NCBI GenBank assembly: GCA_009667805.1
Contig: CM019065.1
Span: 16,380,952 to 16,444,951, forward strand
Length of the DNA: 64,000 bases
Direction: 5' to 3'
Source of the DNA: Leptobrachium leishanense
Taxonomy: Eukaryota; Chordata; Amphibia; Anura; Megophryidae
A model generated the notes under the pieces. The model was not told the origin of the DNA, made no database searches, and saw only the letters and a list, made by a program, of their open reading frames with translations. Below, piece after piece: positions 27,901-63,837 of the stretch. Each line of letters starts with the position of its first letter. Position 1 is the first letter of the stretch. A program made the translations under genes and the position numbers.

Positions 27901-30900
27901 ACAGATAGATATACAGATAGATATACAGATCAATAGATGTCAGACAGATAGATATACAGATAAATAGATGTCAGATATACAGATCAATAGATGTCAGACA
28001 GATAGATATACAGATCAATAGATGTCAGACAGATCAATAGATGTCAGACAGATAGATATACAGATCAATAGATGTCAGACAGATAGATATACAGATCAAT
28101 AGATGTCAGACAGATCAATAGATGTCAGACAGATAGATATACAGATCAGTAGATGTCAGACAGATAGATATACAGATCAATAGATGTCAGACAGATAGAT
28201 ATACAGATCATTAGATGTCAGACAGATATACAGATAAATAGATGTCAGACAGATAGATATACAGATCAGTAGATGTCAGACAGATAGATATACAGATCAA
28301 TGAGTAGAATGTCAGACAGTAGATAGACATATACGCAGATCAATAGATGTCAGATAGAAGATATACAAGATCAATAGATGTCAGACAGATAGTGATATAG
28401 GAAATATATTAGATCAATAGATGTCAGACAGATAGATATACAGATCAATAGATGTCAGACAGATAGATATACAGATCAATAGATGTCAGACAGATCAATA
28501 GATGTCAGACAGATAGATATAAAGATCAATAGATGTCAGACAGATAGATATACAGATCAATAGATGTCAGACAGATAGATATACAGATCAATAGATGTCA
28601 GACAGATAGATATACAGATAAATAGATGTCAGATATACAGATCAATAGATGTCAGACAGATAGATATACAGATCAATAGATGTCAGACAGATAGATATAC
28701 AGATCAATAGATGTCAGACAGATCAATAGATGTCGCAGACAGATAGATTAACAGACCAATAGATGTCAGACAGATAGATATACAGATCAATAGAATGTCA
28801 GACAGATAGATATACAGATCAATTAGATGTCAGACAGATATACAGATAAATAGATGTCAGACAGATAGATATACAGATCTGTATATCTATCTGTCTGACA
28901 TCTACTGATCTGTATATCTATCTGTCTGACATCTATTGATCTGTATATCTATCTGTCAGACATCTACTGATCAATAGATGTCAGACAGATAGATATACAA
29001 ATCAATAGATGTCAGACAGATAGATATACAGATCAATAGATGTCAGACAGATAGATATACAGATCAATAGATGTCAGACAGATAGATATACAGATCAATA
29101 GATGTCAGACAGATAGATATACAGATCAATAGATGTCAGACAGATAGATATACAGATCAATAGATGTCAGACAGATCAATAGATGTCAGACAGATAGATA
29201 TACAGATCAATAGATGTCAGACAGATATACAGATAAATAGATGTCAGACAGATAGATATACAGATCAGTAGATGTCAGACAGATAGATATACAGATCAAT
29301 AGATGTCAGACAGATAGATATACAGATCAATAGATGTCAGACAGATAGATATACAGATCAATAGATGTCAGACAGATAGATATACAGATCAATAGATGTC
29401 AGACAGATCAATAGATGTCAGACAGATAGATATACAGATCAATAGATGTCAGACAGATCAATAGATGTCAGACAGATAGATATACAGATCAATAGATGTC
29501 AGACAGATAGATATACAGATCAATTGATGTCAGACAGATATACAGATCAATAGATGTCAGACAGATATACAGATAAATAGATGTCAGACAGATAGATATA
29601 CAGATCAGTAGATGTCAGACAGATCAATAGATGTCAGACAGATAGATATACAGATCAATAGATGTCAGACAGATAGATATACAGATCAATAGATGTCAGA
29701 CAGATAGATATACAGATCAATAGATGTCAGACAGATAGATATACAGATCAATAGATGTCAGACAGATAGATATACAGATCAATAGATGTCAGACAGATAG
29801 ATATACAGATCAATAAGATGTCAGACAGATAGATATACAGATCAATAGATGTCAGACAGATAGATATACAGATCAATAGATGTCAGACAGATAGATATAC
29901 AGATCAATAGATGTCAGACAGATAGATATACAGATCAATAGATGTCAGACAGATAGATATACAGATCAATAGATGTCAGACAGATAGATATACAGATCAA
30001 TAGATGTCAGACAGATAGATATACAGATCAATAGATGTCAGACAGATAGATATACAGATCAATAGATGTCAGACAGATAGATATACAGACATAGATGTCA
30101 GACAGATATACAGATCATATAGATGTCAGACAGATAGATATACAGATCAATAGATGTCAGACAGAATAGCAGATACAATAGATGTCAGACAGATAGATAT
30201 AAGATCAATAGATGTCAGACAGATAGATAGATACAGATCAATAGATGTCAGACAGATAATAGATGTCAGAAAACAGATATAGATATACAGATCAATAGAT
30301 GTCAGACAGATCAATAGATGTCAGACAGATAGATATACAGATCAGTAGATGTCAGACAGATCAATAGATGTCAGACAGATAGATATACAGATCAGTAGAT
30401 GTCAGACAGATCAATAGATGTCAGACAGATAGATATACAGATCAATAGATGTCAGACAGATAGATATACAGATCAATAGATGTCAGACAGATAGATATAC
30501 AGATCAATTGATGTCAGACAGATAGATATACAGATCAATAGATGTCAGACAGATATATAGATGTCAGACAGATAGATATACAGATCAATAGATGTCAGAC
30601 AGATCAAATAGATGTCAGACAGATAGATATACAGATCAATAGATGTCAGACAGATAGATACAGATCAATAGATGTCAGAAGATAGATATACAGATCAAAT
30701 AGATGTCAGACAGATATACAGATCAATAGATGTCAGACAGATAGATATACAGATCAATAGATGTCAGACAGATAAATAGATGTCAGACAGATAGATATAC
30801 AGATCATAAGATGTCAGACAGATAGATATACAGATCAAATAGATGTCAGACAGATAGATATACAGATCATATTGATTCAGACAGATAGATATACAGATCA

Positions 30901-31735
30901 ATAGATGTCAGACAGATAGATATACAGATCAATAGATGTCAGACAGATAGATACAGATCAATTGATGTCAGACAGATAGATATACAGATCAATAGATGTC
31001 AGACAGATAGATAGATCAATCATGTCAGACAGATAGATATACAGATCAATAGATGTCAGACAGATAGATATACAGATCAATAGATGTCAGACAGATAGAT
31101 ATACAGATCAATAGATGTCAGACAGATATATACAGATCAATAGATGTCAGACAGATAGATATACAGATCAATAGATGTCAGACAGATATACAGATCAATA
31201 GATGTCAGACAGATAGATATACAGATCAATAGATGTCAGACAGATAGATAACAGATCATTAGATGTCAGACAGATAGATATACAGATCAATAGATGTCAG
31301 ACAGATAGATATACAGATCAATAGATGTCAGACAGATAGATATACAGATCAATAGATGTCAGACAGATAATATACAGATCAATAGATGTCAGACAGATAT
31401 ACAGATCAGATGTCAGACAGATAGATATACAGATCAATAGATGTCAGACAGATAGATATACAGATCAATAGATGTCAGACAGATAGAATAGATCAATAGA
31501 TGTCAGACAGATAGATATACAGATCAATAGATGTCAGACAGATAGATATACAGATCAATAGATGTCAGACAGATAGATATACAGATCAATAGATGTCAGA
31601 CAGATAGATATACAGATCAATAGATGTCAGACAGATAGATATACAGATCAATAGATGTCAGACAGATATACAGATCAATAGATGTCAGACAGATAGGTAT
31701 ACAGATAAATAGATGTCAGACAGATAGATACAGCA
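24991..31735. repeat. GATA-rich satellite array, about 6.5 kb
   Basis: After a degenerate gata-type lead-in, the array from about 25270 is built from gatcaatagatgtcagacag plus atagatataca (31 bp), with shorter 27-bp and 19-bp versions that skip part or all of the gatagatatac segment. There are more than 200 units. Variants such as gatcagtag, gataaatag and gatcattag recur in similar orders, pointing to higher-order duplication. Several patches have irregular single-base gains and losses. Confidence 0.96.
28877..28972. repeat. Inverted patch within the GATA-rich array
   Basis: About three units read as the reverse complement (ctgtatatctatctgtctga, then catctactgat), flanked by forward units on both sides. 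It creates a local fold-back with the preceding units. Confidence 0.92.
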
Positions 31736-33554: not shown

Positions 33555-34454
33555 TGTTACATCCTCAGCCCCTGCTGTGCTTCCTGGGGGGTCTGGGCAA
33601 GGTTCGGTGCCAAGGTCTGGTCGTTTGCCAGCACCTTGTACTGGCCAAGCGGCCTCTGAAGAGACGGGGCCTGGCAAGGTGACGAGAAGCCGCCAGGTTT
33701 AAAACAGGGCACGAGGAGTTGCCTCGTTGCCCTGTCGTGGAGTTTGTTCCCACATCGCTACTTATCCTGTGAATTGATTCATTGTTGCCAACCCGTTTCT
33801 GGATACGATCCCTGCTCCTGCTTTTAACCCGGCTTATTTTGACCATTCTATTGCTGCTTGATTACGATCGCCTGTGTGGTGCTTTGGTGGTGTAACCCCA
33901 TGTTTGCCGCTGGGCTGTTGACACGTTACTGGGGTGTTGTCCCTTCTCATTTGTGGGTATCGTCTGTGGCCGCATTAGGTTCCTATACCCAACCAAGGGC
34001 TCATGTTTCCTTGCCACACATTTCTGTAACAACTGCGATCGAAAGGTACGGTTTTCTGCAACTCATGTTCAGTGTGCACTCCTCGCTAAATATACTCGAT
34101 ACTATACCAACGATAGACCCCGATGTGTAGGTCTTGCCTCTGAATATTATACAGTACCGCTGACCTGCTCCAGATTACCAGAAAACGTTAAAACAGCATA
34201 TTTCCTGACTGCCCTGCAGTCCGTGCAATTCACCAACTGTCTAACGTATCTTTGTGTTTCTGAACGTGCTCTAAGTTTTCTATCGGTCTCGAAACCTTTA
34301 GTGCTTAGTAGCAACTCAGTGGTTTGCTCATTATCCCGGTCTCAAGCATATAAATCTGTAAATACCAAGCAGTGTTTAAACGCCAAAAAGATTTATCAGT
34401 CCTTAAGGATCTCAACTCCGCTACTCTCTAGTGGGCGCTACTCCCCCCGTTACA
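33555..34454 (+). repeat. 5' LTR of the chromodomain gypsy element, with TATA box
   Basis: A 900-bp LTR with a TATA-like tttaaaa at 33698-33704. About 31 bp further on is gccctgtcgtg (33729-33739), exactly complementary to the 11 bases just past the LTR (34456-34466). This places the likely transcript start at or near the self-priming segment. Parts of the LTR (ctgactgccctgcag through the gcttagt block) are shared with the LTR at 58588. Confidence 0.9.
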
Positions 34455-34455
34455 T

Positions 34456-34466
34456 CACGACAGGGC
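34456..34466 (+). promoter_or_regulatory. Putative self-priming primer-binding site
   Basis: The bases cacgacagggc lie 1 bp after the LTR and are the exact complement of 33729-33739 inside the LTR. No tRNA 3'-end complement is visible here. The layout matches the self-priming known for Tf1/sushi-type chromodomain elements. The mechanism is inferred from complementarity and spacing. Confidence 0.7.
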
Positions 34467-34472
34467 CTGATA

Positions 34473-35560
34473 TGGATCTGACTGATTTATCTGTACTAAG
34501 GTCTAATCTGGGTGAAATCATAACTAAGCAAGAAGAGCAAGACCATCGCCTGGATCAATTTGCTCAGGCTTTGGGCCTACTCATGGAGCAATTCAAGAAT
34601 TAGGCCAGGCCTCTCCGCCTCCTTCCCCTGTGGGGAGCCTGTCCTCTCAAGCAGTATCTGTGTACTCTATCGTTGCTACTGGGGTAGCTCATGTCAGTTT
34701 AAAGACTCCTACGTGCTTTAATGGGAGTTTGGGTTCATGCAGAGGGTTTATAACCCAAATTGAGATTATGTTTGAATTGAATCCAAGTATGTGTCTCACA
34801 GATAGAGCTAAGGTGGGTTACGTGATTAGCCACCTAACCGAGAAAGCTCTGCAGTGGGCAACCCCCCTGTGGGAACTAAAGAATCCTGTGGTATAGAATT
34901 ATGCTGAGTTTATGGCTGCCTTACGACGCACGTTTGACCCCACTAGAAGGGCAACAGGGGCAGCTAGGGCGCAATGGCGTATATCCCAGGGCAACCACCA
35001 AGTTGTAGATTACGCTATAGAGTTTAAAACTGTGGCAGCAGAATTGTCATTGCCAAATGATGTGCTTGTTACCGCGTTTCTCGAAGGAATTTCAGAGAAT
35101 ATAATGCATGAATTAGCACGTATGGTATTACCTGAGGAGCTAGAGGATCTGGTGGATGGATTACTGTATAGCTCTCGATGATCAGATGCGTGACAGAAGG
35201 TCTGGTCGTACCAAAGCTCATAAACCTTCTCAGGGGGCCAGTTCTGCTTCTAGGTCTACTCATGCTGTCTCTCCTCCCAGGCCTGTAACCACTGAGCCAG
35301 AGCCTATGATATTAGGTCGTTCTTCTGGTATATCAGGAGAGGAGAGACAATATCGCCTCCGAGAGGGGCTGTGCCTCTATTGTGCTGACAGAGGGCATTT
35401 TCGTTTACAATGCCCCAAGCGACCAAAAAGATCTAATGTGTCGGGAAACGAGCAATGCCTAGAATCCCATGAGAGACAGGTTTTGGGTACTACTACTGTG
35501 TATCTCGTATCTAGTAAAAAGAGAAAGAAAAGATCTCTTCAATTGTTGTGCCTGTGTCCA
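34473..35560 (+). pseudogene. gag gene of the chromodomain gypsy element, broken
   Basis: It starts with ATG at 34473, 7 bp after the primer site (MDLTDLSVLRSNLGEIITKQ, a coiled segment). Stops and frame changes appear near 34600, 34895 and 35180. The middle part (34630-35180) looks like capsid. A CCHC zinc knuckle (CLYCADRGHFRLQC) lies at about 35372-35412. The residues just before it resemble those before the knuckle in the 58588 element. Confidence 0.88.
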
Positions 35561-38500
35561 TAGCCTGGGAGAAAATCAGATTGAACACAGAAGCACTGAT
35601 CGATTCTGGGTCTGCAGGCAATTTCTTAGACTCTGGTTTCGCTGCTATTCCCCAAGTGCCTCTGGGGGAAGAGAGAAGTGCCTCTCCTTATCGATGGCAG
35701 GAAACTGTTAAGACCTCATTGTACACATGATACTGTAACGGTCTCTTTTTGTACTGGGGTCCTGCATAAGGAAAGAATCAAGTTTCAAATGATCAAATCG
35801 CCCACAGTACCCATCGTATTGGGGTATCCTTGGTGGGCTAAGCACAATCCAATTGTTAACTGGTCTATGGGAGAGTTGGAACGCTGGGGATCTAAGGGTT
35901 GGTCTAAATGTCTGGGTATGAGTACTGTGGTGGGTAGTCTGAACGTAGCCACTGCTCCACCACTCTCCACAGAGGTTCCTAAGTGGTACAAACATCTCAA
36001 AGAAGTGTTTGATAAAGGGAAATCTGAAATTCTACCCACTCACAGGCCTTACGTCAGTAGTGGGGAAATTAATGGAAACCATGTTAAAGGAAAGGATTGT
36101 TGAACATCTAAAAACATATAGATTACAGGATCAGAAACAACATGGGTTTACCTCAGGGAGATCATGCCAAACTAATCTTATTGATTTTTTTGATTGGGTA
36201 ACAGAAATAATAGACACAGGTGGTGCAGTAGACATTGCTTATTTTGATTTAAGTAAGGCTTTTGATACTGTTCCGCATAGAAGGCTTATCAATAAATTGC
36301 AATCTTTGAGCTTGGATTCCAATATTGTTGAATGGATTAGGCAGTGGCTGAGTGACAGGCAACAGAGGGTTGTGGTAAATGGAGTTTATTCGGCGCAAGG
36401 TCTTGTTACCAGTGGGGTACCTCAGGGGTCAGTACTTGGACCCATTCTCTTTAATATTTTTATTAGTGATATTGCAGAAGCTATTAATGGTAAAGTATGT
36501 CTTTTTGCTGATGACACAAAGATTTGCAACAGGGTTGACGTTCCTGGAGGGATCAGCCAAATGACAAATGATTTAGGTAAACTAAAAAAATGGTCGGAGC
36601 TGTGGCAATTGAGTTTTAATGTGGATAAGTGCAAGATAATGCACCTGGGACGTAAAAACCCAAGGGCTGAATATAGAATATTTGATACAGTCCTAACCTC
36701 AACATCTGAGGAAAGGGATTTAGGGGTCATTATTTCAGAGGATCTAAGGGTAAGTAGTCAATGTAATAGAGCAGCAGGAAATGCTGGCAGAATGCTTGGT
36801 TGTGTAGGGAGAGGTATTAGCAGTAGGAAAAGGGAAGCGCTCATGCCACTGTACAGAGCACTGGTGAGACCTCACTTGGAGTACCGTGTGCAGTACTGGA
36901 GACCGTATCTCCAGAAGGATATAGACATCTTAGAGAGAGTTCAGAGAAGGGCTACTAAAATGGTGTACGGCTTGAAGGAGAAAAGTTACCAGGAAAGGCT
37001 TAATGATCTTAACATGTACAGCTTGGAAAAAAAGACGAGACAGAGGAGATATGATAGAAACATTTAAATACGTAAAGGGAATCCACAAGGTAGAGGAAGG
37101 GAGTATATTTAAAAGGAAACAAAGTAGCAAAACAAGAGGACATAGTCTTAGATTAGAGGGGCAAAGGTTTAAAAGTAACATCAGGAAGCATTATTTTACT
37201 GAGAGGGTGGTGGATACATGGAACAGCCTTACAGTTGAAGTGGTAGAGGCCAAAACAGTGATTGAATTTAAGCAAGCATGGGATAGGCATAAGGCTATCC
37301 TAAACAAAAGATAAATCCAGGTAAAGTATCCATGTAATTGGGCAGACTAGATGGGCCGAAAGGTTCTTATCTGCCGACATTTTTCTATGTTTCTATGATT
37401 GTGCTATAGACCTGCTGCCAGGCACCATGCCTCCTAGATCATGTCTATCCGCTGTCACAAAAAGAGAACGATACCATAGAGGAGTACATTACGGAGAACC
37501 TCGCTAAAGGGTTTATTCGTCTTTCTTCCTCTCCTGCGGAAGAAGGATTCTTTTTCGTATCTAAAAAGGAGGGGGATTTAAGACCTTGCATTGATTATAG
37601 AGGGTTAAACAGAATCACTATAAGTAATGCCTATCCCATCCCACTTATATCCGAGTTATTTGACCGTTTGAGAGGTGCCAAGATTTACACCAAATTGGAC
37701 CTTCGCGGTGCATACAACTTCGTAAGGGTCAAACAAGACCATGAATGGAAGACCGCTTTTAACAGCATGAGCGGCCATTATGATTATCTGGTTATGCCAT
37801 TTGGCTCGTGCAATGCGCCAGCTGTCTTCCAAGACTTAATAAATGATTTCCTGAGGGATTTTTTGCAAGTCTTCGTAATCGTGTATCTAGATGATATCTT
37901 GATTTATTCTCCAGATGTTGAGACACACCATGTCCATGTGCGGACCGTGTTGCAAAAGTTGTTGGAGAATAAGCTGTACTGCAAGTTAGAAAAATGTCTG
38001 TTCGACATAACTTCAGTTCATTTTCTCGGTTACATCATTACACCTGAAGGGTTTGAGATGGACCCAATAAAGTTGTCTGCCATCCAGGAATGGCCACTAC
38101 CTCAGGGTTTAAAAGCGATACAGAGATTCCTGGGTTTCACAAACTATTACAGGAGGTTCATTAAGGGTTTCTCTTCCGTTGTGTCTCCGATCACTGCCAT
38201 GACCAAAAAGGGTGCCCAAAATCAGGTCTGGAGTGACCAAACTATGCAGGCATTTCAGTCACTCAAGGAGGCATTCGTCACGGCAGCTATCCTAAGGCAT
38301 CCAGAGCCAGGCTTGCCATTTCAACTTGAGGTTGATGCGCCCGAGATAGAAATTGGTGCAGTTCTGTCTCAAAGAGAGAGTAATAAGGGACCTGTACACC
38401 CTTGTGGGCTTTTCTCCAGGAAAATGACACCTGCAGAGAGAAATTATGAAATAGGGAACAGAGAGTTACTAGCAGTCATAGCAGCCCTCAAAGAATGGCG

Positions 38501-40130
38501 CTATTTGCTTGAAGGTACCAAAGTTACCGTGATAATGACAGATCATAAGAATCTTATTTACATGGGAGACGCAAAACGTTTGAATTCCAGGCAGGCCCGG
38601 TGGTCCTTGTTCCGGTCTAGTTTCAATTTCTTGCTGACTTACTGTCCTGGGTCAAAAAACACGAAGGCTGATGCTTTGTCCAGGCAATTCGAGTCATATG
38701 AACAGCATACATTCGATCGCAGTCCAATCATTCCTCAGGATTGGATATTGGGTACAACAGTTTTGACTGTGTCTTCTCCATTGTTGGAGAGAATTCAAGC
38801 TGTCCAAGGTGTTGCTCCTCTTGAGAAACCTCCTGGTAAGGTCTTTGTACCTGAGGAGAGAACACAAATGATGATGATATACCATGCATCCATGCCTCAT
38901 GGGCATATGGGGATAACTAAGACTCTAGTCTCTATTGAAAAACAGTTCTGGTGGGCAGGTATGCAAAGGGATATAAAGGACTACATAGCCACATGCGAAG
39001 TGTGCTGTAGAAGCAAAAATACCCGGTCCTTACCTATAGGTCTATTGCAGCCGTTGCCGATGCCTGAGCGACCTTGGTCCCACCTCTCGGTGGACTTCAT
39101 TACCGATCTACCTGTGTCCCAGGGTCATACGGTGATCCTTACTGTGGTAGACAGATTCTCGAAGATGGTGCACTTCGTGCCTCTGGTCAAGCTCCCTTCA
39201 GCTAGTGAGCTGGTGCCAGTATTTGTGCAAAATATTATCAGAATTCATGGGGTTCCTCTGGGAATAGTATCCGACAAAGGGACCCAGTTTGTGTCTCGTT
39301 TCTGGCGAGGGTTTAGTGACAACCTCTGTATCATGTGGAGTTTCTCCTCGGCTTATCACCCACAGACAAATGGGGCCGCAGAGAGAGCCAACCAGAGTGT
39401 CAATCAATACTTGCAGTGCTTTGTATCTGAAAAGCAAAGTGAGTGGACAGACCTGTTACCCTGGGCTGAGGTTGCACTGAACAACTCAGTGAGTGAAACT
39501 ACAGGCCACTCACCGTTCCATACGTTTATGGTTATGATCCTCCCATGCTCCCCTCTGTATTCCAAGGTGCTACGTTGCCAGCCTTGGATGAGCATTTGAA
39601 TAATCTGAAAGAGACATGGGAGAAGGTTAAAGAAATCATGGAGGCAATATTCAAAAGCAAAAAATAAAAGCAGACAGATGCAGAGGTCCTGCACCTGTGT
39701 ATACGGTTGGGGACAAGGTTTGGCTGTCAACTAGAAACATCAAATTGTTGGTGCCGTCCATGAAGATGGCTCCCAGATTTATTGGTCCTTACAAGGTACT
39801 AAGACGTATCAATCTTGTTTCCTATGCTTTGGCGTTACCCCCATATCTACGGATACATAATGTATTTCAGGTTAGCCTCTTGAAACCTCTTACCTGTAAT
39901 AGGTATACCAGAGTCACTGCTCCACTGCCGCCTATCAAGTCCCAGGGTGCGGAGGAGTACAAGGTTTGTGCCATCTTGAGATCCTGTGTGGTCTGTGGTG
40001 TTCTTCAATACCTGGTAGATTGGGAAGGTTATGGGCCGAGGATCGTTCCTGGCTGCCAGCCAGCAAAATCCATGCGCCTCGTCTGGTTCGCCAATTTCAT
40101 GTGGCCCATCCTTCAGCGCCTGGAGGTCAT
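35540..40130 (+). pseudogene. pol gene of the chromodomain gypsy element, interrupted by CR1
   Basis: Protease with the intact DSG triplet near 35602 (ALIDSGSAGNF). RT is cut by the CR1 insertion and resumes near 37400. An open frame of 643 codons (37668-39599) covers the RT palm (VYLDDILIYS near 37885), RNase H and integrase (HASMPHGHMG, CEVCCRSK, then the DDE core with VDFITDLPV, SDKGTQFVSRFW and AERANQS). After a frame break near 39540, a chromodomain-like part follows near 39970-40110 (QYLVDWEGYGP, then DRSWLPASKI in another frame). It is clearly inactive, but the RT-IN block is well kept. Confidence 0.94.
36048..37398 (+). mobile_element. CR1 LINE, 5'-truncated, inside gypsy pol
   Basis: It encodes the second half of a CR1 reverse transcriptase (open at 36009-37067: YFDLSKAFDTVPHRRL, SGVPQGSVLGPILFN, LFADDTKI), followed by a frame change and a C-terminal part (37003-37314). 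It ends in the CR1-type 3' end with atgtttctatgatt. 5' truncation is normal for CR1. The 3' end also occurs at 32637-32737. Confidence 0.92.
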
Positions 40131-40154
40131 TCTGAGTCCGACCATCAGGGGTTC

Positions 40155-41126
40155 TGTTACATCCTCAGCCCCTGCTGTGCTTCCTGGGGGGTCTGGGCAA
40201 AGTTCGGTGCCAAGGGCTGGTCGTTTGCCAGCACCATGTACTGGCCAAGCGGCCTCTGAAGGGGCGGGGCCTGGCATGGTGACGAGGAGCCTCCGGGTTT
40301 AAAACAGGGCACGGGGAGTTGCCTCGTTGCCCTGTCGTGGAGTCTGTTCCCGCGTCGCTACTTATCCTGTGAATTGATTCATTGTTGCCAGCCCGTTTCT
40401 GGATACGATCCCTGCTCCTGCTTTTGACCCGGCTTATTTTGACCATTCTATTGCTGCTTGATTACGATCGCCTGTGTGGTGCTTTGGTGGTGTAACCCCA
40501 TGTTTGCCCCTGGGCTGTTGACACGTTACTGGGGTGTTGTCCCTTCTCGTTTGTGGGTACCGTCTGTGGCCGCATTAGGTTCCTATACCTAAGGGCTCAT
40601 GTTTCCTTGCCACACATTTCTGTAACAACTGCGATCGAAAGGTACTGTTTGTCTGCAGCTCCTGTTCAGTGTGCACTCCTCGCTAAATATACTCGATACT
40701 ATACCAACGATAGACCCCGATGTGTAGGTCTTGCCTCTGAATATCATACAGTACCGTTGACCTGCTCCAGATTATCAGAAAACGTTAAAGCGGCATCTTT
40801 TCTGACTGCCCTGCAGTCTGCGCAACTCACCAACTGTCTGACGTATCTTTGTGTTTCTGAACGTGCTCTAAGTTTTCTATCGGTCTCGAAACCTTTAGTG
40901 CTTAGTAGCAACTCAGTGGTTTGCTCATTATCCCTGTCTCGAGCATATAAGTCTTGAACCCAGGACATACTTGAAAACGAGAGAAATCTCAATGTATCCT
41001 TCCTGGTAAAATCCTTTATAAATAAAAAAATAAATACCAAGCAGTGTTTAAACACCAAGCAGATTTAGCTGTCCTTAAGGATCTCAACTCCGCTACTCTC
41101 TAGTGGGCGCTACTCCCCCCGTTACA
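40155..41126 (+). repeat. 3' LTR of the chromodomain gypsy element, with insertion
   Basis: A 972-bp LTR carrying the same TATA and self-primer segment as the 5' copy. It is longer because a LINE/SINE tail of about 76 bp (40955-41030: gaacccaggacatacttgaa through the ataaaaaa tail) is inserted. The interruption post-dates integration because the 5' LTR lacks it. Confidence 0.92.
40955..41030 (+). mobile_element. LINE/SINE tail in the 3' LTR
   Basis: A short plus-strand copy of the L2-type tail. Comparison with the 5' LTR gives the empty site, so this is a confirmed insertion. Confidence 0.88.
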
Positions 41127-41601: not shown

Positions 41602-42949
41602 ATGGGCAAAAAGACTAGGGGCGGAGGGGAAGTGGAAGCTCCCCATGCCCCTGACATTCGCATTGCTTTAGGAGGAGGGCGACCACTGCGTTCTGACCCA
41701 TCTGGCCCTGACCCGGCCGGCTCGCAGCCCGTGGGGCCCATCACTTTGACACCTGCCCAGCACGAGGTTGCGCTGGATGTGACAGATGACGCTCTCCTGG
41801 CTAGCAAGGGGGATATCCGCACCTTGGTAGCTAATGCCAGGGCTTCCTGGCAAGCAGACTTGCAGGCTCTTGATGCTGCTGTGGCGGTGACCCAGGTGGT
41901 GGATGAACGGGGTCAAGTGCAGGAGCTGGAGGGAGTGCAGGCCACAACCTCTACTCATCTTTGTGCGTCACAACAACAGCTAACTGGATTACAAGCGGCT
42001 GTGGTGGCCCTGGAGTTGAGGCACCGTCGGAAAAATATGAAGCTCTGTGGGGTGCCAGAAACAGTCAAGGACTCAGAGCTTTTAGTGCATGTTTTGCGTT
42101 TTTTTTCAGCCCTCCTACCTACCCTTGACGTCCCCCAGGACTTCATCACGATGGTCCTTCGTGTCAAGAAGGCGGCTTCAGCTCCTGCTGGTGCCCCCCA
42201 GGACGTTGTTGTGGTGGTCAGAGATGCGAAACTCCACTCAGCGTGTTTTGGAGTGGTCCACAATACCTGTCAGGTTCTTTGAGAGAGCCTCTTTTGTGGT
42301 GTATCGGGACCTTCCTTTTCTGGTCCTGGCTGTCAGATGCCACTTTCTGCCAGTAACGGCATTGCACCGCGACATCTGCTATCGCTGGAGAGTGCTTGGC
42401 TCCCTGATAATTCATCGGAAGGATGGACCCCCACTTCAGGCCTCTACGGCTGAAGAAGCTGACGTCCATCTCCGTCTGTTTTGCGTTTTTTTTCAGCCCT
42501 CCTACCTACCCTTGACGTCCCCCAGGACTTCATCACGATGGTCCTTCGTGTCAAGAAGGCGGCTTCAGCTCCTGCTGGTGCCCCCCAGGACGTTGTTGTG
42601 GTGGTCAGAGATGCGAAACTCCACTCAGCGTGTTTTGGAGTGGTCCACAATACCTGTCAGGTTCTTTGAGAGAGCCTCTTTTGTGGTGTATCGGGACCTT
42701 CCTTTTCTGGTCCTGGCTGTCAGATGCCACTTTCTGCCAGTAACGGCATTGCACCGCGACATCTGCTATCGCTGGAGAGTGCTTGGCTCCCTGATAATTC
42801 ATCGGAAGGATGGACCCCCACTTCAGGCCTCTACGGCTGAAGAAGCTGACGTCCATCTCCGTTTATTGGGATTGCTACCCAACACCCCGTTATATGCTGC
42901 GACAGAGTCTCCTGATGCTTCCCCTTTGCCTTCTAGTGTCCCTGATTAA
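41602..42949 (+). pseudogene. L1/Tx1 ORF1 (RNA-binding protein), frameshifted and internally duplicated
   Basis: It starts at ATG 41602 (MGKKTRGGGEVEAP). A helical region with recurring leucine and alanine follows. Then comes an RRM-like start (RRKNMKLCGVPETV), and the frame ends at 42282. The C-terminal part continues in another frame (42089-42949), with HLRLLGLLPNTP near its end. ORF1p of this clade is an RNA-binding chaperone in the LINE particle. A 387-bp tandem duplication (42091-42477 and 42478-42864) repeats the RRM end and C-terminal domain. Confidence 0.75.
42091..42864. repeat. Tandem duplication, 2 x 387 bp
   Basis: The segment from gttttgcgttttttttcagc through gacgtccatctccgt appears twice head to tail at an offset of 387 bp (129 codons, so frame-preserving). 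I saw no mismatch between copies, so it is recent or an assembly duplication. Confidence 0.93.
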
Positions 42950-55735: not shown

Positions 55736-56303
55736 TTTAGATGAGGGTAAGTAGCTGAGTATGTGAAGTAGTGGGACGCATGACCCAAAGAAATGGTGAG
55801 GCGAGAAGTTCACACATAGGAAAATACTCATTTGTGCCGCGCTGTCTCCGTAAACTCCAAAGATGTAGCAGAGGAGTCTTGCCGAAGAACCACTGGAAGC
55901 ACCGTGACAAGTGCAACATATCATACCGAGTACTGCTCCTCCGCTATATAGAACATTTTCACTTTATTATAGACACAATTTATAAGCGAAGCCACAAAAA
56001 GACAAATCCTGCACGTCGTACATTACAAGTGAAAAGGACACCGTGGCCTGGGCAACACAGAGAAAACGTAAAGAAGTACGACTCACAAAATATCACACAC
56101 ACAGACACAAAACCTCCATCACAGCCTATAAATATGTGCAAAGCAGCACAAAACATGCGAGGAGTTTCAGCAGGAGAGTGACTTGTTCCTGAACATGCTG
56201 TGAATTTTCAGTCATCTGTATTAATTTTTGAACCTTGTTGAATATAGTGAGAGATGTTAGACATATATATATATATCTGTCTGTCTAACATCTCTCTATT
56301 GTA
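55736..56303. other. TNFSF13 intron 1, nothing recognised
   Basis: No coding region is supported. Near 56240-56290 agatgttagacatatata pairs with tgtctaacatctc, a small hairpin next to the Tc1 fragment. Confidence 0.5.
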
Positions 56304-56640
56304 CACTCACTGGCCACTTTATTAGGTACACCCTGCTAGTATTGGGTTGGACCCCCTTTTTTGCCTTCAGATCTACCGTAATTCTTGTTGGCATAGATTC
56401 CACAAGGTGTTGGAAACATTCCTCAGAGATTTTGGTCCATATTGACATGATGGCGTCACGCAGTTGCTGCAGGTTTGTTGGCTGCACATCCATGATGCGA
56501 ATCTCCCGTTCCACCACATCCCAAAGGTGCTCTATTGGATTGAGATCTGGGGACTGTGAAGGCCATTGGATGAAAATTGGCCAACACTCATTTTGTATCC
56601 GGCCTGAGCTTGAAATGCCTCTACTGTGACATCTACCACC
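56304..56640 (-). mobile_element. Tc1 fragment, same family as 8575-9776
   Basis: The left terminal repeat cactcactggccactttatt sits next to TA (56302-56303). The minus strand encodes the end of the transposase (SPDLNPIEHLWDVVEREIR, then NLQQLRDAIMSIWTKI). It breaks off near 56580-56640. Confidence 0.9.
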
Positions 56641-56644
56641 AACG

Positions 56645-57450
56645 GCTCCCTCGTACGGATTTATAAACCTCCAGAACAATGCTGCTACTAAAACCTGATA
56701 AAGACAACACTCTATAAGAGTCATACCACCCACCTCTCTGCTGAACCAAGACCTAAAAAGACTTTCCAAAATGGTAGTTTGGCCACTTTCAAACATCCGC
56801 TCCCTCTACCCTTACCAATCACCAACTGGGGTTTGTTGGAGGAGGTCACTCACCATTTGGATTATGTAATGCTATTGTTGCGATTGTGAAATCTAACCTG
56901 GCAACTAAAGGCACCTGACTAGATGGTGCCCCATCCACCTGAGCCTTGACATGGAGAAAGCCTTTGACAAGATGACTCGCGCCCAAATAATCAGTTCTTA
57001 AACTCACAATATTTTGGCTCTACTTTTCTTAAACTCTCCCTCAAGTGTGATTATCACAAACAGCTTTTGCTGCTGGCTTTATGTAGGGGAACGCATCAAG
57101 GATGCCCGCTTTCTCCTCTCCTACTTAAACCCACTGTATAGAACCCTCAAAAAGCTATGCTCCTTCTCTGCAGGTCTTTCCATTGGGAATGAAAAGGATT
57201 ACCTTAGCAGCATTCACAGCCATGCTGCTATTTTCTTTTGTTCATGATTGATTCTTAAGAGGTTTCAGCAGTTTGGATATTTTACAGTTTCTCCATAGAC
57301 TTAATCAGTGACGATCCATCTAGGCCCCTGCTGGGTTCCCCAAAACAGTCACACCTACTCCTTCCAAAGACCCTCAACAATAATCAAATATATAGGAAGT
57401 TACATTGTCAAACACATTAACAATCACTTTCACATTTTTCCACCTTCAAC
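56645..57450 (+). pseudogene. Eroded L1/Tx1-type ORF2 reverse transcriptase
   Basis: Short frame fragments in order resemble an RT core: LLLKPDKDNTL near 56690, LGFVGG near 56830, LDMEKAFDK near 56950 (the conserved AFD motif), and GERIKDARFLLSYLNPLY near 57090, where an active element has a QGCPLSP-type motif. Many stops and frame changes. Unrelated in state to the ORF1-only copy at 41340. Confidence 0.6.
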
Positions 57451-57458
57451 AAATGGTT

Positions 57459-58449
57459 GTTGTCACGAAATTTATTTGTGTGTATTTATTTGTGTATATA
57501 TATATATATAATTATAAACAAGTTGCCAAGGCTGCACAGTTGACCCGCAAAGCGTAAGTTTCTGGCTGTTCTAGGAAGTAATGAAGAGGTTTGTCTCTTT
57601 GGTGACCACTAAGTCCCCTTTTGAAGGGATATCACAGGCTTTTGCAGAATAGGCTCTCTTTACCCATTTGCTCTAATGGAATGTCCTGTCCCCACATGAG
57701 TCCACAAGCATTTCACAGCTTGGGCAAATGGAAAAGCACATCCCAGACCAAGTGGCGGCACCTTGTAAGTGATCACTTAGATCAAAGAAGCGGGCACATC
57801 CTTTGATCACTAGAGACATCGCTGGCTAATTGTTAACTACATCTGTGAACTAAAATTGAAGCAGTGAACTGAGCATGCCCACAAATTAACAGGAGGGGAA
57901 ATTCTGGGAAATGTATTGGGCGGGCTGTACCATCTATGGGCTGCATTTTGAATGAACTGGAAAATCTATATATTCTGAGTCAAGCAAGGGCTCAGGGCTT
58001 TTTTTCGTTGGGATTCATGTAAGAAGTGAAAAATGTCTGGTTCTTCCAATCTCCAGCCCAGGAGGACACAGATATCCTGCTAGCTTGCTGACGTGAGTAA
58101 GGGTCTGTGTTTTTAATCCGTTTTATTTTTTCTGCTTGTGTGTGTAAATTGGTAATTATCATATCTAATTTTTCTGTAACCATATGCACTGTGATATCAT
58201 TTTTTATCGTAATAAATCAAAAACTTATTAAGATCTGCTTCTGCCGGATAGTCGATCCATGCTAACTGAAGGACTGGATTATCATAGAGATTTGAATTTA
58301 TTTAAACTCGAGTCTACTAAAAAGTCAGTTGTGAAGTCAGTCGTTGGACTGCTTCTTATTTTGGGGTGCATAGTCAGAGTCTCAAGCCAGCTCTGGTTCA
58401 GGTATTAGGCATCCTGGGTAAAAGTCTTGGTCTGTAGTGGCAGTGTGAC
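57459..58449 (+). mobile_element. LTR-like sequence
   Basis: It starts tgtcacgaaat and ends cagtgtgaca, with inverted tgtcac/gtgaca ends. A TATA-type tatatattctgag lies near 57968 and aataaa at about 58211, the order expected in an LTR. No target duplication, internal region or partner was seen. The boundaries are tentative. Confidence 0.4.
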
Positions 58450-58587
58450 AAATAGTACAAGGAAAGTGGGTACAGGGATTGTGGGCAATGTAGTTAGTAC
58501 TCCGGGTCGAGTGTAGACGGATACGGCGCTGCAACCCTGTGACCATTTCATCATGTGGCGTGCCCTTCTGGAGCGACAGGCAAGCGC

Positions 58588-59348
58588 TGTCACGTCTCGG
58601 CCTTGCCCCCTGGTGATGAAGGGTCTTCATGTTTGTTTTTCCCCTATGGTGTGTCTGGCTGTGCTGTTTAGTGCTGATCTGGGGCTCTGTTGTGATCTCC
58701 TGGTCTGGGGTCACATGGCCCAATCACACAGACCCACTCCCTATATATTCCCAGCAGCACAGAGCCTCATTGACTGTTTGTGGAGTTTGATGGTGGTTCT
58801 GTCTGGTTCGTGTTTCCTGAGTTGCTGCAAAGCATTCCTGTTCAAGTGTTTTCTGGTTCTGACCTCGGCTTTATTTTTGACTATCCCTTCTACTTCCCCC
58901 TGGTACCGTATATTTCTGATCTGTTGCCAACCTCTGCCTGATTGACGATTCTTGTATGTTTCATGTTTTATGTACCTTGTCTGTCTTAGTTTAGTATATT
59001 ATTCAGAGGCCGCTTATAAGGACCTCTTTTAGTATAGTCTGTTTTGTTTACTGTCCTTCAGCCTGCTCACTTCACGGATTGTCAAGTGTATCTTTGTGTT
59101 TCTCTGACTGCCCTGCAGCCTGCTCAATTCACGGATTGGCAGGCGTATCATTGTGTTTCTGAGTGTCCTAAGTTGTCTGTCGGTCTTGAAGCCTTCGGAG
59201 CTTAGTGGCAATTCTGTTGTTTTTTGGTGCTCCTTGGTTTTGGAGAAATCCGTCTGTCCTTGTGTCCAGTCAGTTACTCACCTGCCTTAAGGGCTTCATC
59301 TCCTGTTCCAAGCCACCACGATGGCCCAAGCAGGGGCTAACCGTTACA
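58588..59348 (+). repeat. 5' LTR of the pol-less element
   Basis: It begins tgtcacgtctcgg and ends ctaaccgttaca. A TATA box (tatatat, 58742-58748) lies about 30 bp before gactgtttgt (58772-58781), which is complementary to the primer site at 59351. A direct repeat of about 65 bp inside it (cttcagcctgctcacttcac and ctgcagcctgctcaattcac) is the part that resembles the 33555 LTR. Confidence 0.93.
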
Positions 59349-59350
59349 TT

Positions 59351-59360
59351 ACAAACAGTC
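59351..59360 (+). promoter_or_regulatory. Putative self-priming primer-binding site
   Basis: acaaacagtc lies 2 bp after the LTR and is the exact complement of 58772-58781 in the LTR. It lies just before ATG 59366. Confidence 0.65.
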
Positions 59361-59365
59361 CATTA

Positions 59366-62138
59366 ATGCCTGCAGGTGAGCTTACTGTGTTAAATTCTGT
59401 GCTTCAGATGGTTTTTGATCTGCTGACAGAGCTGAAGAGGTTAATGCTGTCTCTCAGTGTGCTTAATTATGCGGTTCCTCCCAGCAGAGTCTCTGGGGAA
59501 CCTCCCATGAGTGAAAGAGAGAGACGTAGAATTATTAATCTCTGTTATTATTGCAGTTCACCCCAGCATAAAATCTTTTGCTGTCCATTAAAGCCCAAAC
59601 CCAGAATGTCATGTTCTCAGGGTGAGACCCTGGTAGCCACGTCATGTAGCCATAGCGCTGACCCTACTGCTGGGACCTCTGTTTCTGTGCAATCCAGGGG
59701 TGTTGCAAATTCCATGTGTGGTAATAAAGCCAAAATTGCTCCACCTCAAGGCACACTACCTGCTTCCATGTTATGCAGTGGATCACTGTTTCTCAGTTCC
59801 TGTCATGGGTCTAGGGCCCAGGGTGGCGCTGATGCCACAAGGGCCCAGGGTGGCGCTGATGCCACAAGGGCCCAGGGTGGTGCTGATGCCACAAGGGCCC
59901 AGGGTGGCGCTGATGCCACAAGGGCCCAGGGTGGCGCTGATGCCACAAGGGCCCAGGGTGGCGCTGATGCCACAAGGGCCCAGGGTGGTGCTGATGCCAC
60001 AAGGGCCAGGGTGGCGCTGATGCCACAGGGCCCAGGGTGGTGCTGATGCCACAAGGGCCCAGGGTGGCGCTGATGCCACAAGGGCCCAGGGTGGCGCTGA
60101 TGCCACAAGGGCCCAGGGTGGCGCTGATGCCACAAGGGTCCAGGGTGGCGCTGTTGTTACAGGTACACAGCATAAAGAAAAACCTGTCTGTTCTGCACAT
60201 TGTATTGTGCCTATGTCCGTTCCTGGCGGGAGGCCAGTTTTGTTTCTGTCTGACAAGGTGTCAGCGGTGCCAGAACCTGGCACATTGCCGGTAACACTCC
60301 CAAGCTGTGTGTCAGCGGTAACACTCCCAAGCTGTGTGTCAGCGGTAACACTCCCAAGCTGTGTGTCAGCGGTAACACTCCCAAGCTGTGTGTCAGCGGT
60401 AACACTCCCAAGCTGTGTGTCAGCGGTAACACTCCCAAGCTGTGTGTCAGCAGTTTTGTCCCAGGTGGGCCTAGAGCCCTTCACGCCTGTCATGGGCCCA
60501 GAGCCCTTCCTGCCTGCTGACGAGTCAGTTGTGCCGATGTTGAGCTACAAGGTAGCCGTGCCTATGCTTTGTTATGAGGCCGAAGTGCCTGTATCTAAAC
60601 ATGAAACCTTCATGCCTGGTTCTACTAGCGAGCTGCTAGTCATGCCGATTCCGATCCACGAGACAGTTGTGCCCGTGTTGTGCGAGGCAGCCGTGCCCAT
60701 GTTCTGCTGCGAGGCAGCCGTGCCCATGTTCTGCTGCGAGGCAGCCGTGCCCATGTTCTGCTGCGAGGCAGTCGTGCCCATGTTCTGCTGCGAGGCAGCC
60801 GTGCCCATGTCCTGCTGCGAGGCAGCCGTGCCCATGTCCTGCTGCGAGGCAGCCGTGCCCATGTCCTGCTGCGAGGCAGCCGTGCCCATGTTCTGCTGCG
60901 AGGCAGCCGTGCCCATGTCCTGCTGCGAGGCAGCCGTGCCCATGTCCTGCTGCGAGGCAGCCGTGCCCATGTCCTGCTGCGAGGTAGCCGTGCCCATGTC
61001 CTGTTGCGAGGCAGCCGTGCCCATGTCCTGTTGCGAGGCAGCCGTGCCCATGTCCTGTTGCGAGGCAGCCGTGCCCATGTCCTGCTGCGAGGCAGCCGTG
61101 CCCATGTCCTGCTGCGAGACTGCTGAGGCCTCGTTAGGTTATGAGACCAATGTGCTTACATTAACACATGAGACCACTGTGCCCTTGTCCCACAGTGGGT
61201 CCATTGTTGTTTCTACCGTTGTCTTGCCAAGTGTGGGTCCCGAGCCCTTCATGTGTAATTCGGGCAATGTGCCCCTAATGCCTGTTTCTGGCGATATGCC
61301 AATTTTGTCCCAGGTGGGTACTAAGTCCTTCATGTCTGGTTTGGGCCAAGAGCCCCTCATGTCAGCCCCTGATGGCACGCTGCCAGGTATGTCTGTTTCT
61401 GGTTATTTGCCAGTCCTGCCAGTTAATGGAGTGACATCCAAACTGACTGGTGCTACTAATTCTAGCCCTGTACCCGAGGGTTATATACGATCCCCATGCG
61501 GGATGTTGTTCCGTGAGGCACACTGGGCCATGATCAAGAAAGACCCTAATGCTCTCAGGTGTTTTGAGGAGGATTCCGATGACTCGGAGGGTCTACAGTG
61601 CACTCCTCCAGGTGAAATCTGTAACAATGGTGAGGTGCCAGTTGTATCATATCCTGGCAATGTCCTCTGTTCCGATGGTGTGCCAGTTAAAGGCGAGTTG
61701 TCAAGTCTGTCCAAGTCGAGCTGCAAGGCAGTCGTATCCAAGTCAAGTCACGGGACCACTGTGCCCACGTCTCGCAGTGGGTCCATTGCTGTCAAAACCA
61801 CTTGTGGGGTCGAGAGGTCTCAATCGTGTGGTGTTAAACAGATAACCAAGTCTGCCCCTACTATTGCCGTGTCGTTTGGGGTGGTCACCAGTTCTAGATC
61901 TCGTTCAAGGAGAAGACGTAAAAAGGTGACTAACCCTAGTCCAACTGATTCCATGTCCAGTCTGACTGATGCTGAGATCCCCCAACCCCGTCATGTCCCT
62001 GAGGGCTATGTGCAGTCGCCCTTTGGACTGGTGTTCAGAAAGGACCACTGGGATGCCATTCAAAGGAACCCTCATAGACGGAGGCGTCTTGGGGAGGAGG
62101 ATGACGACTCTGAGTGGGACCTCAATGGATTTTGGTGA
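59366..62138 (+). CDS. Gag-derived repeat protein of the pol-less LTR element (frame broken once)
   Basis: ATG 59366 starts MPAGELTVLNSVLQM, 5 bp after the primer site, as gag does in the 33555 element. An in-frame ATG at 59321 lies inside the LTR in a good start context. The order is: helical N-terminus; CCHC knuckle CYYCSSPQHKIFCC (about 59543-59584) with gag-like flanks; 9-residue repeats RAQGGADAT (about 59815-60150); VTLPSCVSA (about 60288-60450); EAAVPMSCC/EAAVPMFCC (about 60684-61120); then two copies of a 40-residue module, VPEGYxxSPxGxxFRxxHW (61470 and 61995), each followed by an acidic DDSE stretch; stop at 62136. Two single-base losses inside the first array (about 60006 and 60029) shift the frame. 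The second open part runs to 62138. The function of the repeat part is unknown. Confidence 0.75.
59815..60150. repeat. 27-bp coding minisatellite A (RAQGGADAT)
   Basis: About 13 units of gggcccagggtggcgctgat plus gccacaa. Two neighbouring units lack one base each, near 60006 and 60029. The final unit is diverged (ggtccagg, then ttgttac). Confidence 0.95.
60285..60455. repeat. 27-bp coding minisatellite B (VTLPSCVSA)
   Basis: Six near-identical units of gtaacactcccaagctgtgt plus gtcagcg, all in frame. Confidence 0.95.
60684..61123. repeat. 27-bp coding minisatellite C (EAAVPMSCC)
   Basis: About 16-17 units of gaggcagccgtgcccatgtc plus ctgctgc. The main variation is tcc/ttc (Ser/Phe) and tgc/tgt. 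Diverged 9-residue units lie on both sides (VAVPMLCYE before, TTVPLSHSG after), so the array grew inside an older repeat. Confidence 0.95.
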
Positions 62139-62210
62139 CTGGTGTTCGTGATCTGGTTTCATGATTATGTCTGCCATGTTTTTTGTTTTGGGTGCCCAGG
62201 AGGTCACCCG

Positions 62211-62225
62211 TAAGGGAGGGGGTTA
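62211..62225 (+). promoter_or_regulatory. Polypurine tract of the pol-less element
   Basis: taagggagggggtta directly before the 3' LTR. This is the expected plus-strand primer site for LTR-element replication. Confidence 0.75.
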
Positions 62226-62986
62226 TGTCACGTCTCGGCCTTGCCCCCTGGTGATGAAGGGTCTTCATGTTTGTTTTTCCCCTATGGTGTGTCTGGCTGT
62301 GCTGTTTAGTGCTGATCTGGGGCTCTGTTGTGATCTCCTGGTCTGGGGTCACATGGCCCAATCACACAGACCCACTCCCTATATATTCCCAGCAGCACAG
62401 AGCCTCATTGACTGTTTGTGGAGTTTGATGGTGGTTCTGTCTGGTTCGTGTTTCCTGAGTTGCTGCAAAGCATTCCTGTTCAAGTGTTTTCTGGTTCTGA
62501 CCTCGGCTTTATTTTTGACTATCCCTTCTACTTCCCCCTGGTACCGTATACTTCTGATCTGTTGCCAACCTCTGCCTGATTGACGATTCTTGTATGTTTC
62601 ATGTTTTATGTACCTTGTCTGTCTTAGTTTAGTATATTATTCAGAGGCCGCTTATAAGGACCTCTTTTAGTATAGTCTGTTTTGTTTACTGTCCTTCAGC
62701 CTGCTCACTTCACGGATTGTCAAGTGTATCTTTGTGTTTCTCTGACTGCCCTGCAGCCTGCTCAATTCACGGATTGGCAGGCGTATCATTGTGTTTCTGA
62801 GTGTCCTAAGTTGTCTGTCGGTCTTGAAGCCTTCGGAGCTTAGTGGCAATTCTGTTGTTTTTTGGTGCTCCTTGGTTTTGGAGAAATCCGTCTGTCCTTG
62901 TGTCCAGTCAGTTACTCACCTGCCTTAAGGGCTTCATCTCCTGTTCCAAGCCACCACGATGGCCCAAGCAGGGGCTAACCGTTACA
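62226..62986 (+). repeat. 3' LTR of the pol-less element
   Basis: Same length and sequence as 58588-59348 apart from c at 62551. It is followed directly by the second agcgc. Confidence 0.94.
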
Positions 62987-62991
62987 AGCGC

Positions 62992-63837
62992 TTGCTGGGG
63001 ATTGTGTGCCGCGTAGTCATTATTTTGGGTCTAGTGTAGACAGATAGTGATTTCCTTAAGCCTGTGTTTCTTTCGCCGCGGCACGCATATGTGACAGTCG
63101 TTACTAGCCTTGACTTTGGGCCATATTCCGACCATGGTGTAAACTTAGCATCTCCATAAACTTCAATGACTCTGGTTAAGTTTACAACAGTTCTGGTTAA
63201 GTTTACACCAGGATTGGAATACGGCTTTTTGTTGGGTATAATTGCCTTGTTTACGTTAACATCTTTTCCTAACTATAAGTTTAGAGGGTCATCCAGACAT
63301 GGACCCCTTGCTTGATGTGCCTAGAGTGGTGTCAGCTATACCCTCCTGACGAGGCCTAACAAGGACGAAACAATCATCGGGGGTTGCTGCACCTCTCGCG
63401 TAGGGATGATGTCCTTGGCAATCAGTACTGGCCACCCTTTTTGGGTAAGAGCAGACTGATTTGCATATGGAGCATTCATCCCTATAATAGCACAAGCAAG
63501 CTAAAACCTTGTGAGACCTGAGTGGGCCCCCACCGTAGAGCAGGTCACTGGTGCTGTTGCTCGTCCTCAGGTCCCTCACAAACCCCTTTCCCTAAACTCC
63601 TTTATCGCTTACCGCTCCTATATCAATCCAGAAAGAAGATATGGTCTCCCTAGTTTCAAAATTTGTCAACGTTCTTTGAAACTCCGTAGAATCTGCTTAT
63701 ATGAATGTAAACACTTAGATTTGGCAAATTAAGGCAGCCTAAGGGATTGTAAATTGTAATCTCCGGGATTGATGCGAAATGCCTTGAACTGGATTGGTTC
63801 CAACAGTACCATTATTAAGAAGGACTTAGACGGTTAA
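62992..63837. other. TNFSF13 intron 1, with a small MITE-like repeat
   Basis: At 63119-63228 the block ggccatattccgaccatggt...gtaaactta is answered by taagtttacaccaggattgg aatacgg, which suggests a short inverted-repeat element. The rest, including cctgacgaggcctaacaagg near 63346, is not recognised. No coding region is supported. Confidence 0.45.

What the first reader, a model, noticed from the sequence alone, without database searches (positions are those of the whole stretch)
58588..62986. Very young, pol-less LTR element encoding a gag-derived repeat protein
Seen: one mismatch found in 761 bp of LTR, an exact 5-bp target duplication and a polypurine tract. The interior has no RT or integrase but holds over 900 codons of near-continuous reading frame. 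The frame starts like gag, keeps a zinc knuckle and then turns into repeat arrays and two copies of an unknown module. Most non-autonomous LTR elements carry little or no coding sequence, so a kept 2.7-kb frame suggests the protein does something for the element.
Basis: partly seen in the sequence, partly recalled or inferred. Interest (0 to 1): 0.9.

Follow-up and report, generated by a model that had tools for sequence, protein, structure and literature searches.

The report
Capsid-less retrotransposon with repeat-built protein
This stretch, likely from a frog genome, holds a recently inserted jumping gene with no detectable copying enzymes or capsid domain; matching RNA segments would let its transcript prime its own copying, and its interrupted reading frame would encode a largely repeat-built protein, likely under selection in its end modules, that is predicted to help it ride on a related element's machinery.

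Summary
Window 58588-62986 is a young LTR element: two 761-bp LTRs with one mismatch, TSD AGCGC, polypurine tract, no detectable RT/RH/IN. I add four things. (1) A self-primer: 10 nt just after the 5' LTR are exactly complementary to 10 nt lying 30 nt after the TATA box. A pol-bearing Ty3/gypsy relative in the window has its own, different pair; five of ten positions differ between the elements and change on both sides. This fits the Tf1/sushi group. (2) Pfam finds the relative's capsid even in broken pieces; here it finds none, although a zinc knuckle remains. (3) In this copy the frame is broken: array 1 is two bases short, giving ORFs of 241 and 705 codons. (4) Two 41-codon C-terminal modules differ more per synonymous than per nonsynonymous site (pN/pS 0.36; neutral median 0.97). 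Four other internal duplicates and the 27-nt repeats show no such bias, though the repeats keep phase. A different copy appears, open over 309 residues, in a Leptobrachium leishanense gene model. The host genome search did not complete, so copy number and dN/dS between copies are unknown. Likely a satellite whose capsid-less Gag-derived protein works in cis on a partner's particles.

The parts
58583..58587 (.). 5' target site duplication AGCGC
58588..59348 (+). 5' LTR, 761 bp, TGTCACG...CGTTACA
58742..58749 (+). TATA box (TATATATT)
58772..58781 (+). self-primer segment GACTGTTTGT, predicted 5' end of the transcript
   Evidence: 30 nt after the start of the TATA box
59351..59360 (+). primer-binding site ACAAACAGTC, exact reverse complement of 58772-58781
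59321..60046 (+). ORF 1, 241 codons: predicted N-terminal helix, zinc knuckle, first 7 units of array 1, then out of phase; ATG in good Kozak context inside the LTR
59366..59368 (+). second in-frame ATG, at LTR+18 as in the relative's gag
59372..59470 (+). predicted 33-residue helix (residues 18-50 from ATG 59321)
   Evidence: single-sequence model, mean pLDDT 62; residues 21-30 average 85, 31-40 93, 41-50 70
59543..59584 (+). zinc knuckle CYYCSSPQHKIFCC
59813..60153 (+). array 1, 27-nt unit (RAQGGADAT), 12.7 copies, two bases short inside
60021..62138 (+). ORF 2, 705 codons
60289..60451 (+). array 2, 27-nt unit (SAVTLPSCV), 6 copies, 100% alike
60456..60680 (+). decayed 27-nt repeats, about half the bases changed
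60681..61118 (+). array 3, 27-nt unit (CEAAVPMSC), 16.2 copies
61119..61475 (+). decayed 27-nt repeats continuing
61470..61592 (+). module A (VPEGYIRSPCGMLFREAHW...DDSEG)
61896..61925 (+). basic stretch RSRSRRRRKK, possible nuclear localisation signal (motif by recall)
61995..62117 (+). module B (VPEGYVQSPFGLVFRKDHW...DDSEW), acidic tail to the stop
62212..62222 (+). polypurine tract AAGGGAGGGGG
62226..62986 (+). 3' LTR
62987..62991 (.). 3' target site duplication AGCGC
33555..41126 (+). pol-bearing Ty3/gypsy relative used as yardstick (TSD ATCCA; self-primer 33729-33739 and PBS 34456-34466)

Best explanation
This is a young LTR retrotransposon with no detectable capsid or pol domain and a predicted Tf1/sushi-type self-priming site, whose likely Gag-derived, largely repeat-built protein is predicted to act in cis to bring the element's own RNA into particles made by a pol-bearing partner. 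Shown: LTRs, target duplication, exact primer/PBS complementarity with paired changes against a relative, zinc knuckle, no Pfam capsid or pol, 27-nt repeats decayed in phase, an excess of synonymous change between the two end modules. Inferred: the transcript starts at the primer segment and folds back on the PBS; the partner's RT and integrase copy and insert it; the N-terminal helix docks on the partner's Gag, the zinc knuckle holds the RNA, the repeats are a flexible spacer whose length is free but whose phase must be kept so that the end modules are translated, and the basic stretch and acidic modules act in the nucleus or on chromatin. In this copy the frame is broken, so it would need the protein from a sister copy, unless the two-base loss is an assembly error.
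For: Element anatomy. LTR ends match the Sushi motifs TGTYANR / CNTNACA printed in PMC3601003 Table 3 (passage seen). Self-primer: 10-nt exact complementarity, 30 nt after TATA; 5 of 20,000 random 14-mers of the window reach a 10-nt run in the stretch 15-60 nt after TATA, 7 of 2,000 anywhere in the LTR. The relative has its own 11-nt pair 31 nt after TTTAAAA; five of ten positions differ between the elements and change on both sides; cross-pairs reach only 4 nt. Self-priming is described as likely common to Tf1/Sushi elements (PMC6317226, passages). Zinc knuckle 41% identical to the relative's, E 0.005. Capsid control: Retrotrans_gag 5.2e-9 (above its cut-off), DUF4939 2.4e-5 and Ty3_capsid 0.0018 (both below theirs) in the relative's broken pieces, nothing in this element. 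Modules A/B: mismatches at codon positions 1/2/3 = 14, 10, 23 of 41 each, permutation p 0.004; pN 0.28, pS 0.78, ratio 0.36 against neutral median 0.97 and 0.5% quantile 0.54. Decayed repeats: lags 12-125 with z>3 are 3 of 38 multiples of three and 0 of 76 others in each of two stretches, including codon-sized shifts. Second copy: P0001, 309 residues aligned, 8 substitutions, gaps of 3 and 9 residues. Precedent: mouse IAP 1-delta-1 has a gag/pol deletion and a fusion protein reported to act in cis while gag and pol come in trans (PMC6466679, passage).
Against: This copy's frame is broken in array 1. Repeat residues show no third-position excess: mismatches 0.59/0.45/0.53 and 0.63/0.52/0.55 at positions 1/2/3; of 5 internal duplicate pairs tested only the module pair shows one, so its p of 0.004 is about 0.02 after five tests. 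In count the modules have more nonsynonymous (27.2) than synonymous (19.8) changes, pS is near saturation, and LWL85 and YN00 failed. The module test could reflect past selection; its neutral simulation starts from module A and allows no stops. The N-terminus shows no significant similarity to the relative's Gag start (p 0.41) and no homologue was found. P0001 is an annotated protein, hence chosen for being open; it holds module A but ends before module B, and its DNA was not seen. No partner with matching LTRs was seen: the relative's LTR matches mainly over about 125 of 761 bp at 78-79%. LTR ends fit rGmr1 motifs equally. Docking, packaging and nuclear roles are untested.
Confidence: 0.5

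Rival explanations
1. Passenger frame: the element moves only by its RNA signals (self-primer, PPT, LTR ends) with all proteins supplied in trans; the frame is a remnant of a once-coding element and now decays.
For: This copy's frame is broken. Decayed repeats and four of five internal duplicate pairs show no third-position excess. ETn shows that LTR elements without coding capacity can move on MusD proteins (PMC6466679, passages).
Against: The module pair shows constraint; the decayed repeats and P0001 keep phase; 339 codons outside the tight arrays stay open.
Confidence: 0.32
2. Interfering protein: a capsid-less Gag fragment that poisons or titrates partner particles, or damps its own copy number, rather than helping.
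For: Keeps a zinc knuckle and a predicted helix but no detectable capsid, a make-up that could suit a dominant-negative Gag (inference).
Against: No direct evidence; gives no obvious reason for the kept end modules unless the host selects for it.
Confidence: 0.1
3. Host gene or domesticated fusion, with the LTRs incidental: the L. leishanense record names the protein as the BCKDHA enzyme.
For: P0001 joins the element's frame to BCKDHA-type sequence under the name 2-oxoisovalerate dehydrogenase subunit alpha.
Against: The frame lies between LTRs with a TSD here, and the 230-residue BCKDHA part of P0001 has no tblastn match in the window at E up to 10; P0001 reads as a gene model running through an intronic or neighbouring copy (inference).
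Confidence: 0.03

Closest known systems
Tf1/sushi group (chromovirus V-clade) of Ty3/gypsy elements
   Same: LTR end motifs, 5-bp TSD, primer segment near the predicted transcript start complementary to the PBS, zinc knuckle
   Different: no detectable capsid, protease, RT, RNase H or integrase; 27-nt repeat arrays and duplicated modules instead
TR-GAG elements of plants (PMC9784723, PMC8704663; passages)
   Same: two LTRs around a Gag-type frame and no pol; helper in trans assumed
   Different: TR-GAGs encode a GAG protein; here no Gag domain is detected; likely animal host; self-primed
Mouse IAP 1-delta-1 (PMC6466679, passage)
   Same: non-autonomous, keeps a deleted Gag-derived frame; its fusion protein is reported to work in cis
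   Different: an ERV; the frame is a gag-pol fusion; no repeat arrays (last point by recall)
ETn/MusD (PMC6466679, passages) and LARD (by recall)
   Same: pol-less, moved or assumed to be moved by partners
   Different: no coding capacity in ETn, non-coding interior in LARDs; here two ORFs of 241 and 705 codons

Membership tests
Tf1/sushi group | LTR ends TGTYANR / CNTNACA | tested here: met
   TGTCACG / CGTTACA against the table passage of PMC3601003; the rGmr1 motifs of that table also fit
Tf1/sushi group | PBS complementary to the element's own transcript start | tested here: met
   10-nt exact match 30 nt after TATA, five paired changes against the relative; the transcript start itself is predicted, not measured
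Tf1/sushi group | RT/IN phylogeny, chromodomain | not testable with these tools
   the element has no detectable pol; the relative is Ty3-like (best PDB hit Ty3, 1.8e-123) with only a weak chromodomain hit (E 0.094, below cut-off)
TR-GAG | LTRs flanking one ORF, no pol | tested here: inconclusive
   LTRs and lack of pol met; the ORF is split in two in this copy
TR-GAG | GAG domain in the ORF | tested here: not met
   no Gag/capsid family in any of the pieces scanned, while the relative's capsid is found
IAP 1-delta-1-like | Gag-derived protein acting in cis, gag and pol in trans | not testable with these tools
   needs bench data
IAP 1-delta-1-like | Gag joined to pol remnant | tested here: not met
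   no pol family; possible protease remnant not supported, shuffle p 0.17
LARD | LTR element over 4 kb with non-coding interior (recalled) | tested here: not met
   4.4 kb but 241 and 705 codons open

The most novel reading that the evidence does not exclude
A vertebrate retrotransposon satellite that swapped the capsid half of Gag for a 9-residue repeat stalk and paired acidic modules, turning Gag into a cis-packaging and nuclear adaptor: a new kind of capsid-less Gag that lets a pol-less element outcompete its helper.
Probability: 0.3. Interest if true: 0.75.

Novelty: new variant of a known kind. Interest (0 to 1): 0.52.

Why it matters
It is a case where a pol-less LTR element keeps a large reading frame with signs of selection on part of it, so the question whether such proteins serve the element becomes directly testable by comparing copies. 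The self-primer pair with five paired changes also suggests that self-priming is kept in a non-autonomous derivative, and it gives a marker for finding its helper.

Tried and rejected
Protease remnant in the stretch before array 2: local alignment to the relative's protease start not better than shuffles (p 0.17). Gag N-terminal similarity: p 0.41; only the start position agrees. Residue-level selection in the repeats: not seen; 4 of 5 internal duplicate pairs show no third-position excess. A 9-residue period between the modules is weak (z 2.0). Module fold: two-sequence model, mean pLDDT 64.7, hairpin plus helix; Foldseek against PDB gave 68 matches with E<=10 (50 listed), none <=0.001, best 1.8, so no fold is claimed. 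PDB sequence search of the C-terminus: 0 hits at E up to 1. Protein searches: C-terminal region 1 hit among 4,930 candidates, N-terminus 0 of 73 at E up to 1, last 232 aa 0 of 786 at E up to 10. Viral contigs: 4 pattern matches, none a relative. Rfam on 58000-63600: 0. The RNA fold of the predicted leader pairs primer with PBS, but 11 of 12 versions with the stretch between them and the tail shuffled do too, so this adds nothing beyond the complementarity. Pfam's zinc-knuckle model hits neither this element's knuckle nor the relative's, so its silence there says nothing. Non-coding minisatellite control for phase-keeping: 7 of 12 arrays show out-of-phase peaks, but four of these look like dinucleotide periodicity and the arrays are less decayed, so the control is not clean; array 1 of the element itself shows out-of-phase peaks, as its two-base loss would give; arrays 2 and 3 show none.

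Literature (novelty): nine searches. In the titles and abstract starts listed I saw no frog or vertebrate element of this make-up; some lists were capped (25 of 289, 10 of 17), and the library holds open-licence papers only. Of eight papers I saw passages; none was read whole. Chaparro et al. 2015 and Butler et al. 2001 were seen only as reference-list entries.
Full report
What is there. The element spans 58588-62986. The LTRs are 761 bp each with one mismatch (LTR position 326, T/C), TSD AGCGC, ends TGTCACG...CGTTACA, and a polypurine tract AAGGGAGGGGG lies three bases before the 3' LTR. With the flanks joined, the target reads as the 12-bp palindrome GCAAGCGCTTGC. One mismatch in 761 points to a very recent insertion.

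Self-priming. The sequence after the 5' LTR begins TTACAAACAGTCC, not with the TGG of tRNA-type sites (recall; no tRNA comparison was run). Bases 59351-59360 are the exact reverse complement of 58772-58781, which lie 30 nt after TATATATT. Among 20,000 random 14-mers of the window, 5 reach a 10-nt run in the stretch 15-60 nt after the TATA box; anywhere in the LTR, 7 of 2,000 do. The Ty3/gypsy relative at 33555-41126 in the same window (5' LTR 900 bp, TSD ATCCA) has an 11-nt pair at 33729-33739 and 34456-34466, 31 nt after TTTAAAA. In register, the primers read GACTGTTTGT and GCCCTGTCGT: five of ten positions differ, and the PBSs differ at the same five, each kept complementary; cross-pairs reach only 4 nt. 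That is compensatory change and supports a working self-primer as described for Tf1/Sushi elements (PMC6317226, passages). LTR ends fit the Sushi motifs, and equally the rGmr1 motifs, of PMC3601003 (passage). The RNA fold adds nothing beyond the complementarity.

Coding. ATG 59321 sits inside the LTR in a good Kozak context (A at -3, G at +4); a second in-frame ATG at 59366 is at LTR+18, where the relative's gag ATG also lies. ORF 1 (241 codons) holds a predicted helix (residues 18-50) and the zinc knuckle; ORF 2 has 705 codons. They are separated by a two-base shortfall inside array 1 (spacing 52 for 54), so this copy is broken. If the host is L. leishanense, its assembly was made from PacBio RS-II reads polished with Illumina reads (PMC6895153, passages), and base losses in a repeat array could be assembly errors; this was not tested. 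Pfam finds the relative's capsid in two broken pieces (Retrotrans_gag 5.2e-9, above cut-off; DUF4939 2.4e-5 and Ty3_capsid 0.0018, below theirs) and nothing in this element's Gag part; RT, RNase H and integrase are found in the relative and not here. The knuckles align at 41% identity, E 0.005, within the window.

Repeat history. Arrays 1-3 have 27-nt units and make up 942 nt; a further 582 nt are decayed repeats. Either side of array 3 the sequence looks unique but carries a 9-residue period (z 6.0 and 5.4) and a 27-nt DNA period with about half the bases changed. Of lags 12-125, those with z>3 are all multiples of three (3 of 38 against 0 of 76 in each stretch), including lags of 84 and 111 = 81+3 and 108+3 in the first stretch, that is codon-sized shifts. 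Yet mismatches are not more common at third positions. So phase seems to have been kept and residues not, as a translated spacer would show. The number of indel events behind this is small, and the non-coding control was not clean.

Modules. A (61470-61592) and B (61995-62117) are 41-codon duplicates; they differ at 14, 10 and 23 of 41 first, second and third positions (permutation p 0.004; Fisher p 0.0037). By sites, pN is 0.28 (27.2 changes) and pS 0.78 (19.8 changes); the ratio 0.36 lies below the 0.5% quantile (0.54) of 3,000 neutral simulations. dS is saturated, and two other estimators failed. Four other internal duplicate pairs show no such excess, so the module p is about 0.02 after five tests. 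This points to purifying selection since the duplication, though not necessarily up to today.

Other copies. The only homologue found is P0001, a Leptobrachium leishanense (Megophryidae) gene model in which the element's frame is joined to BCKDHA-type sequence. Over 309 aligned residues it has 8 substitutions, each reachable by one base change, and gaps of 3 and 9 residues; it covers module A and ends before module B. It was found as an annotated protein, so its openness is biased evidence, and its DNA was not seen; it does show a second, different copy, as its BCKDHA part has no match in the window. The window is therefore likely from Leptobrachium or a close frog; this is an inference from one hit. 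The host genome search did not complete in 22 tries, so copy number, helper and dN/dS between copies stay open.

How it likely works. RNA starts at the primer segment, folds back on the PBS, and is copied by a helper's RT inside the helper's particles; the helper's integrase inserts it (inferred from the anatomy). Without a capsid the protein is unlikely to build particles itself. The role I think most likely is a cis adaptor: helix to the helper's Gag, knuckle to RNA, phase-locked spacer, then two modules with a basic stretch between them and acidic tails. A precedent is mouse IAP 1-delta-1, whose gag-pol fusion protein is reported to help in cis while gag and pol come in trans (PMC6466679, passage). 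The main rival is that the frame is a decaying passenger; the broken frame and unconstrained repeats speak for it, the modules against.

Verdict. Real and unusual, a new variant of the non-autonomous LTR elements with a Gag-type frame; not a TR-GAG by the domain test. Interest is moderate because the decisive comparison of copies could not be run.

Noticed in passing
33555-41126: Ty3/gypsy element with TSD ATCCA, broken gag, an ORF at 35949-37067 that looks like a LINE reverse transcriptase (label by recall), and about 75 bp of extra sequence in its 3' LTR
   Followed up: partly
14480-19007: second gypsy-like element (by recall of its ORFs); its Gag-like ORF 14480-15193 hits Pfam PNMA (8e-6) and, below cut-off, zf-CCHC
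   Followed up: no
42090-42862: 387-bp unit duplicated in tandem with 100% matches
   Followed up: no
25274-31730: 6.4-kb minisatellite of a 31-bp unit
   Followed up: no
58475-58523 and 62998-63046: flanks of the element carry a 49-nt repeat (78%), about 119 bp apart in the empty site
   Followed up: no
59321-59348 and 62959-62986: a start codon in good context lies inside the LTR, so every solo LTR would carry it
   Followed up: partly
59373-59382: CAGGTGAGCT just after the second ATG looks like a splice donor (by recall)
   Followed up: no
8692-9174, 19466-20065, 56296-56805: ORFs resembling Tc1-type transposase fragments (label by recall, ORFs)
   Followed up: no
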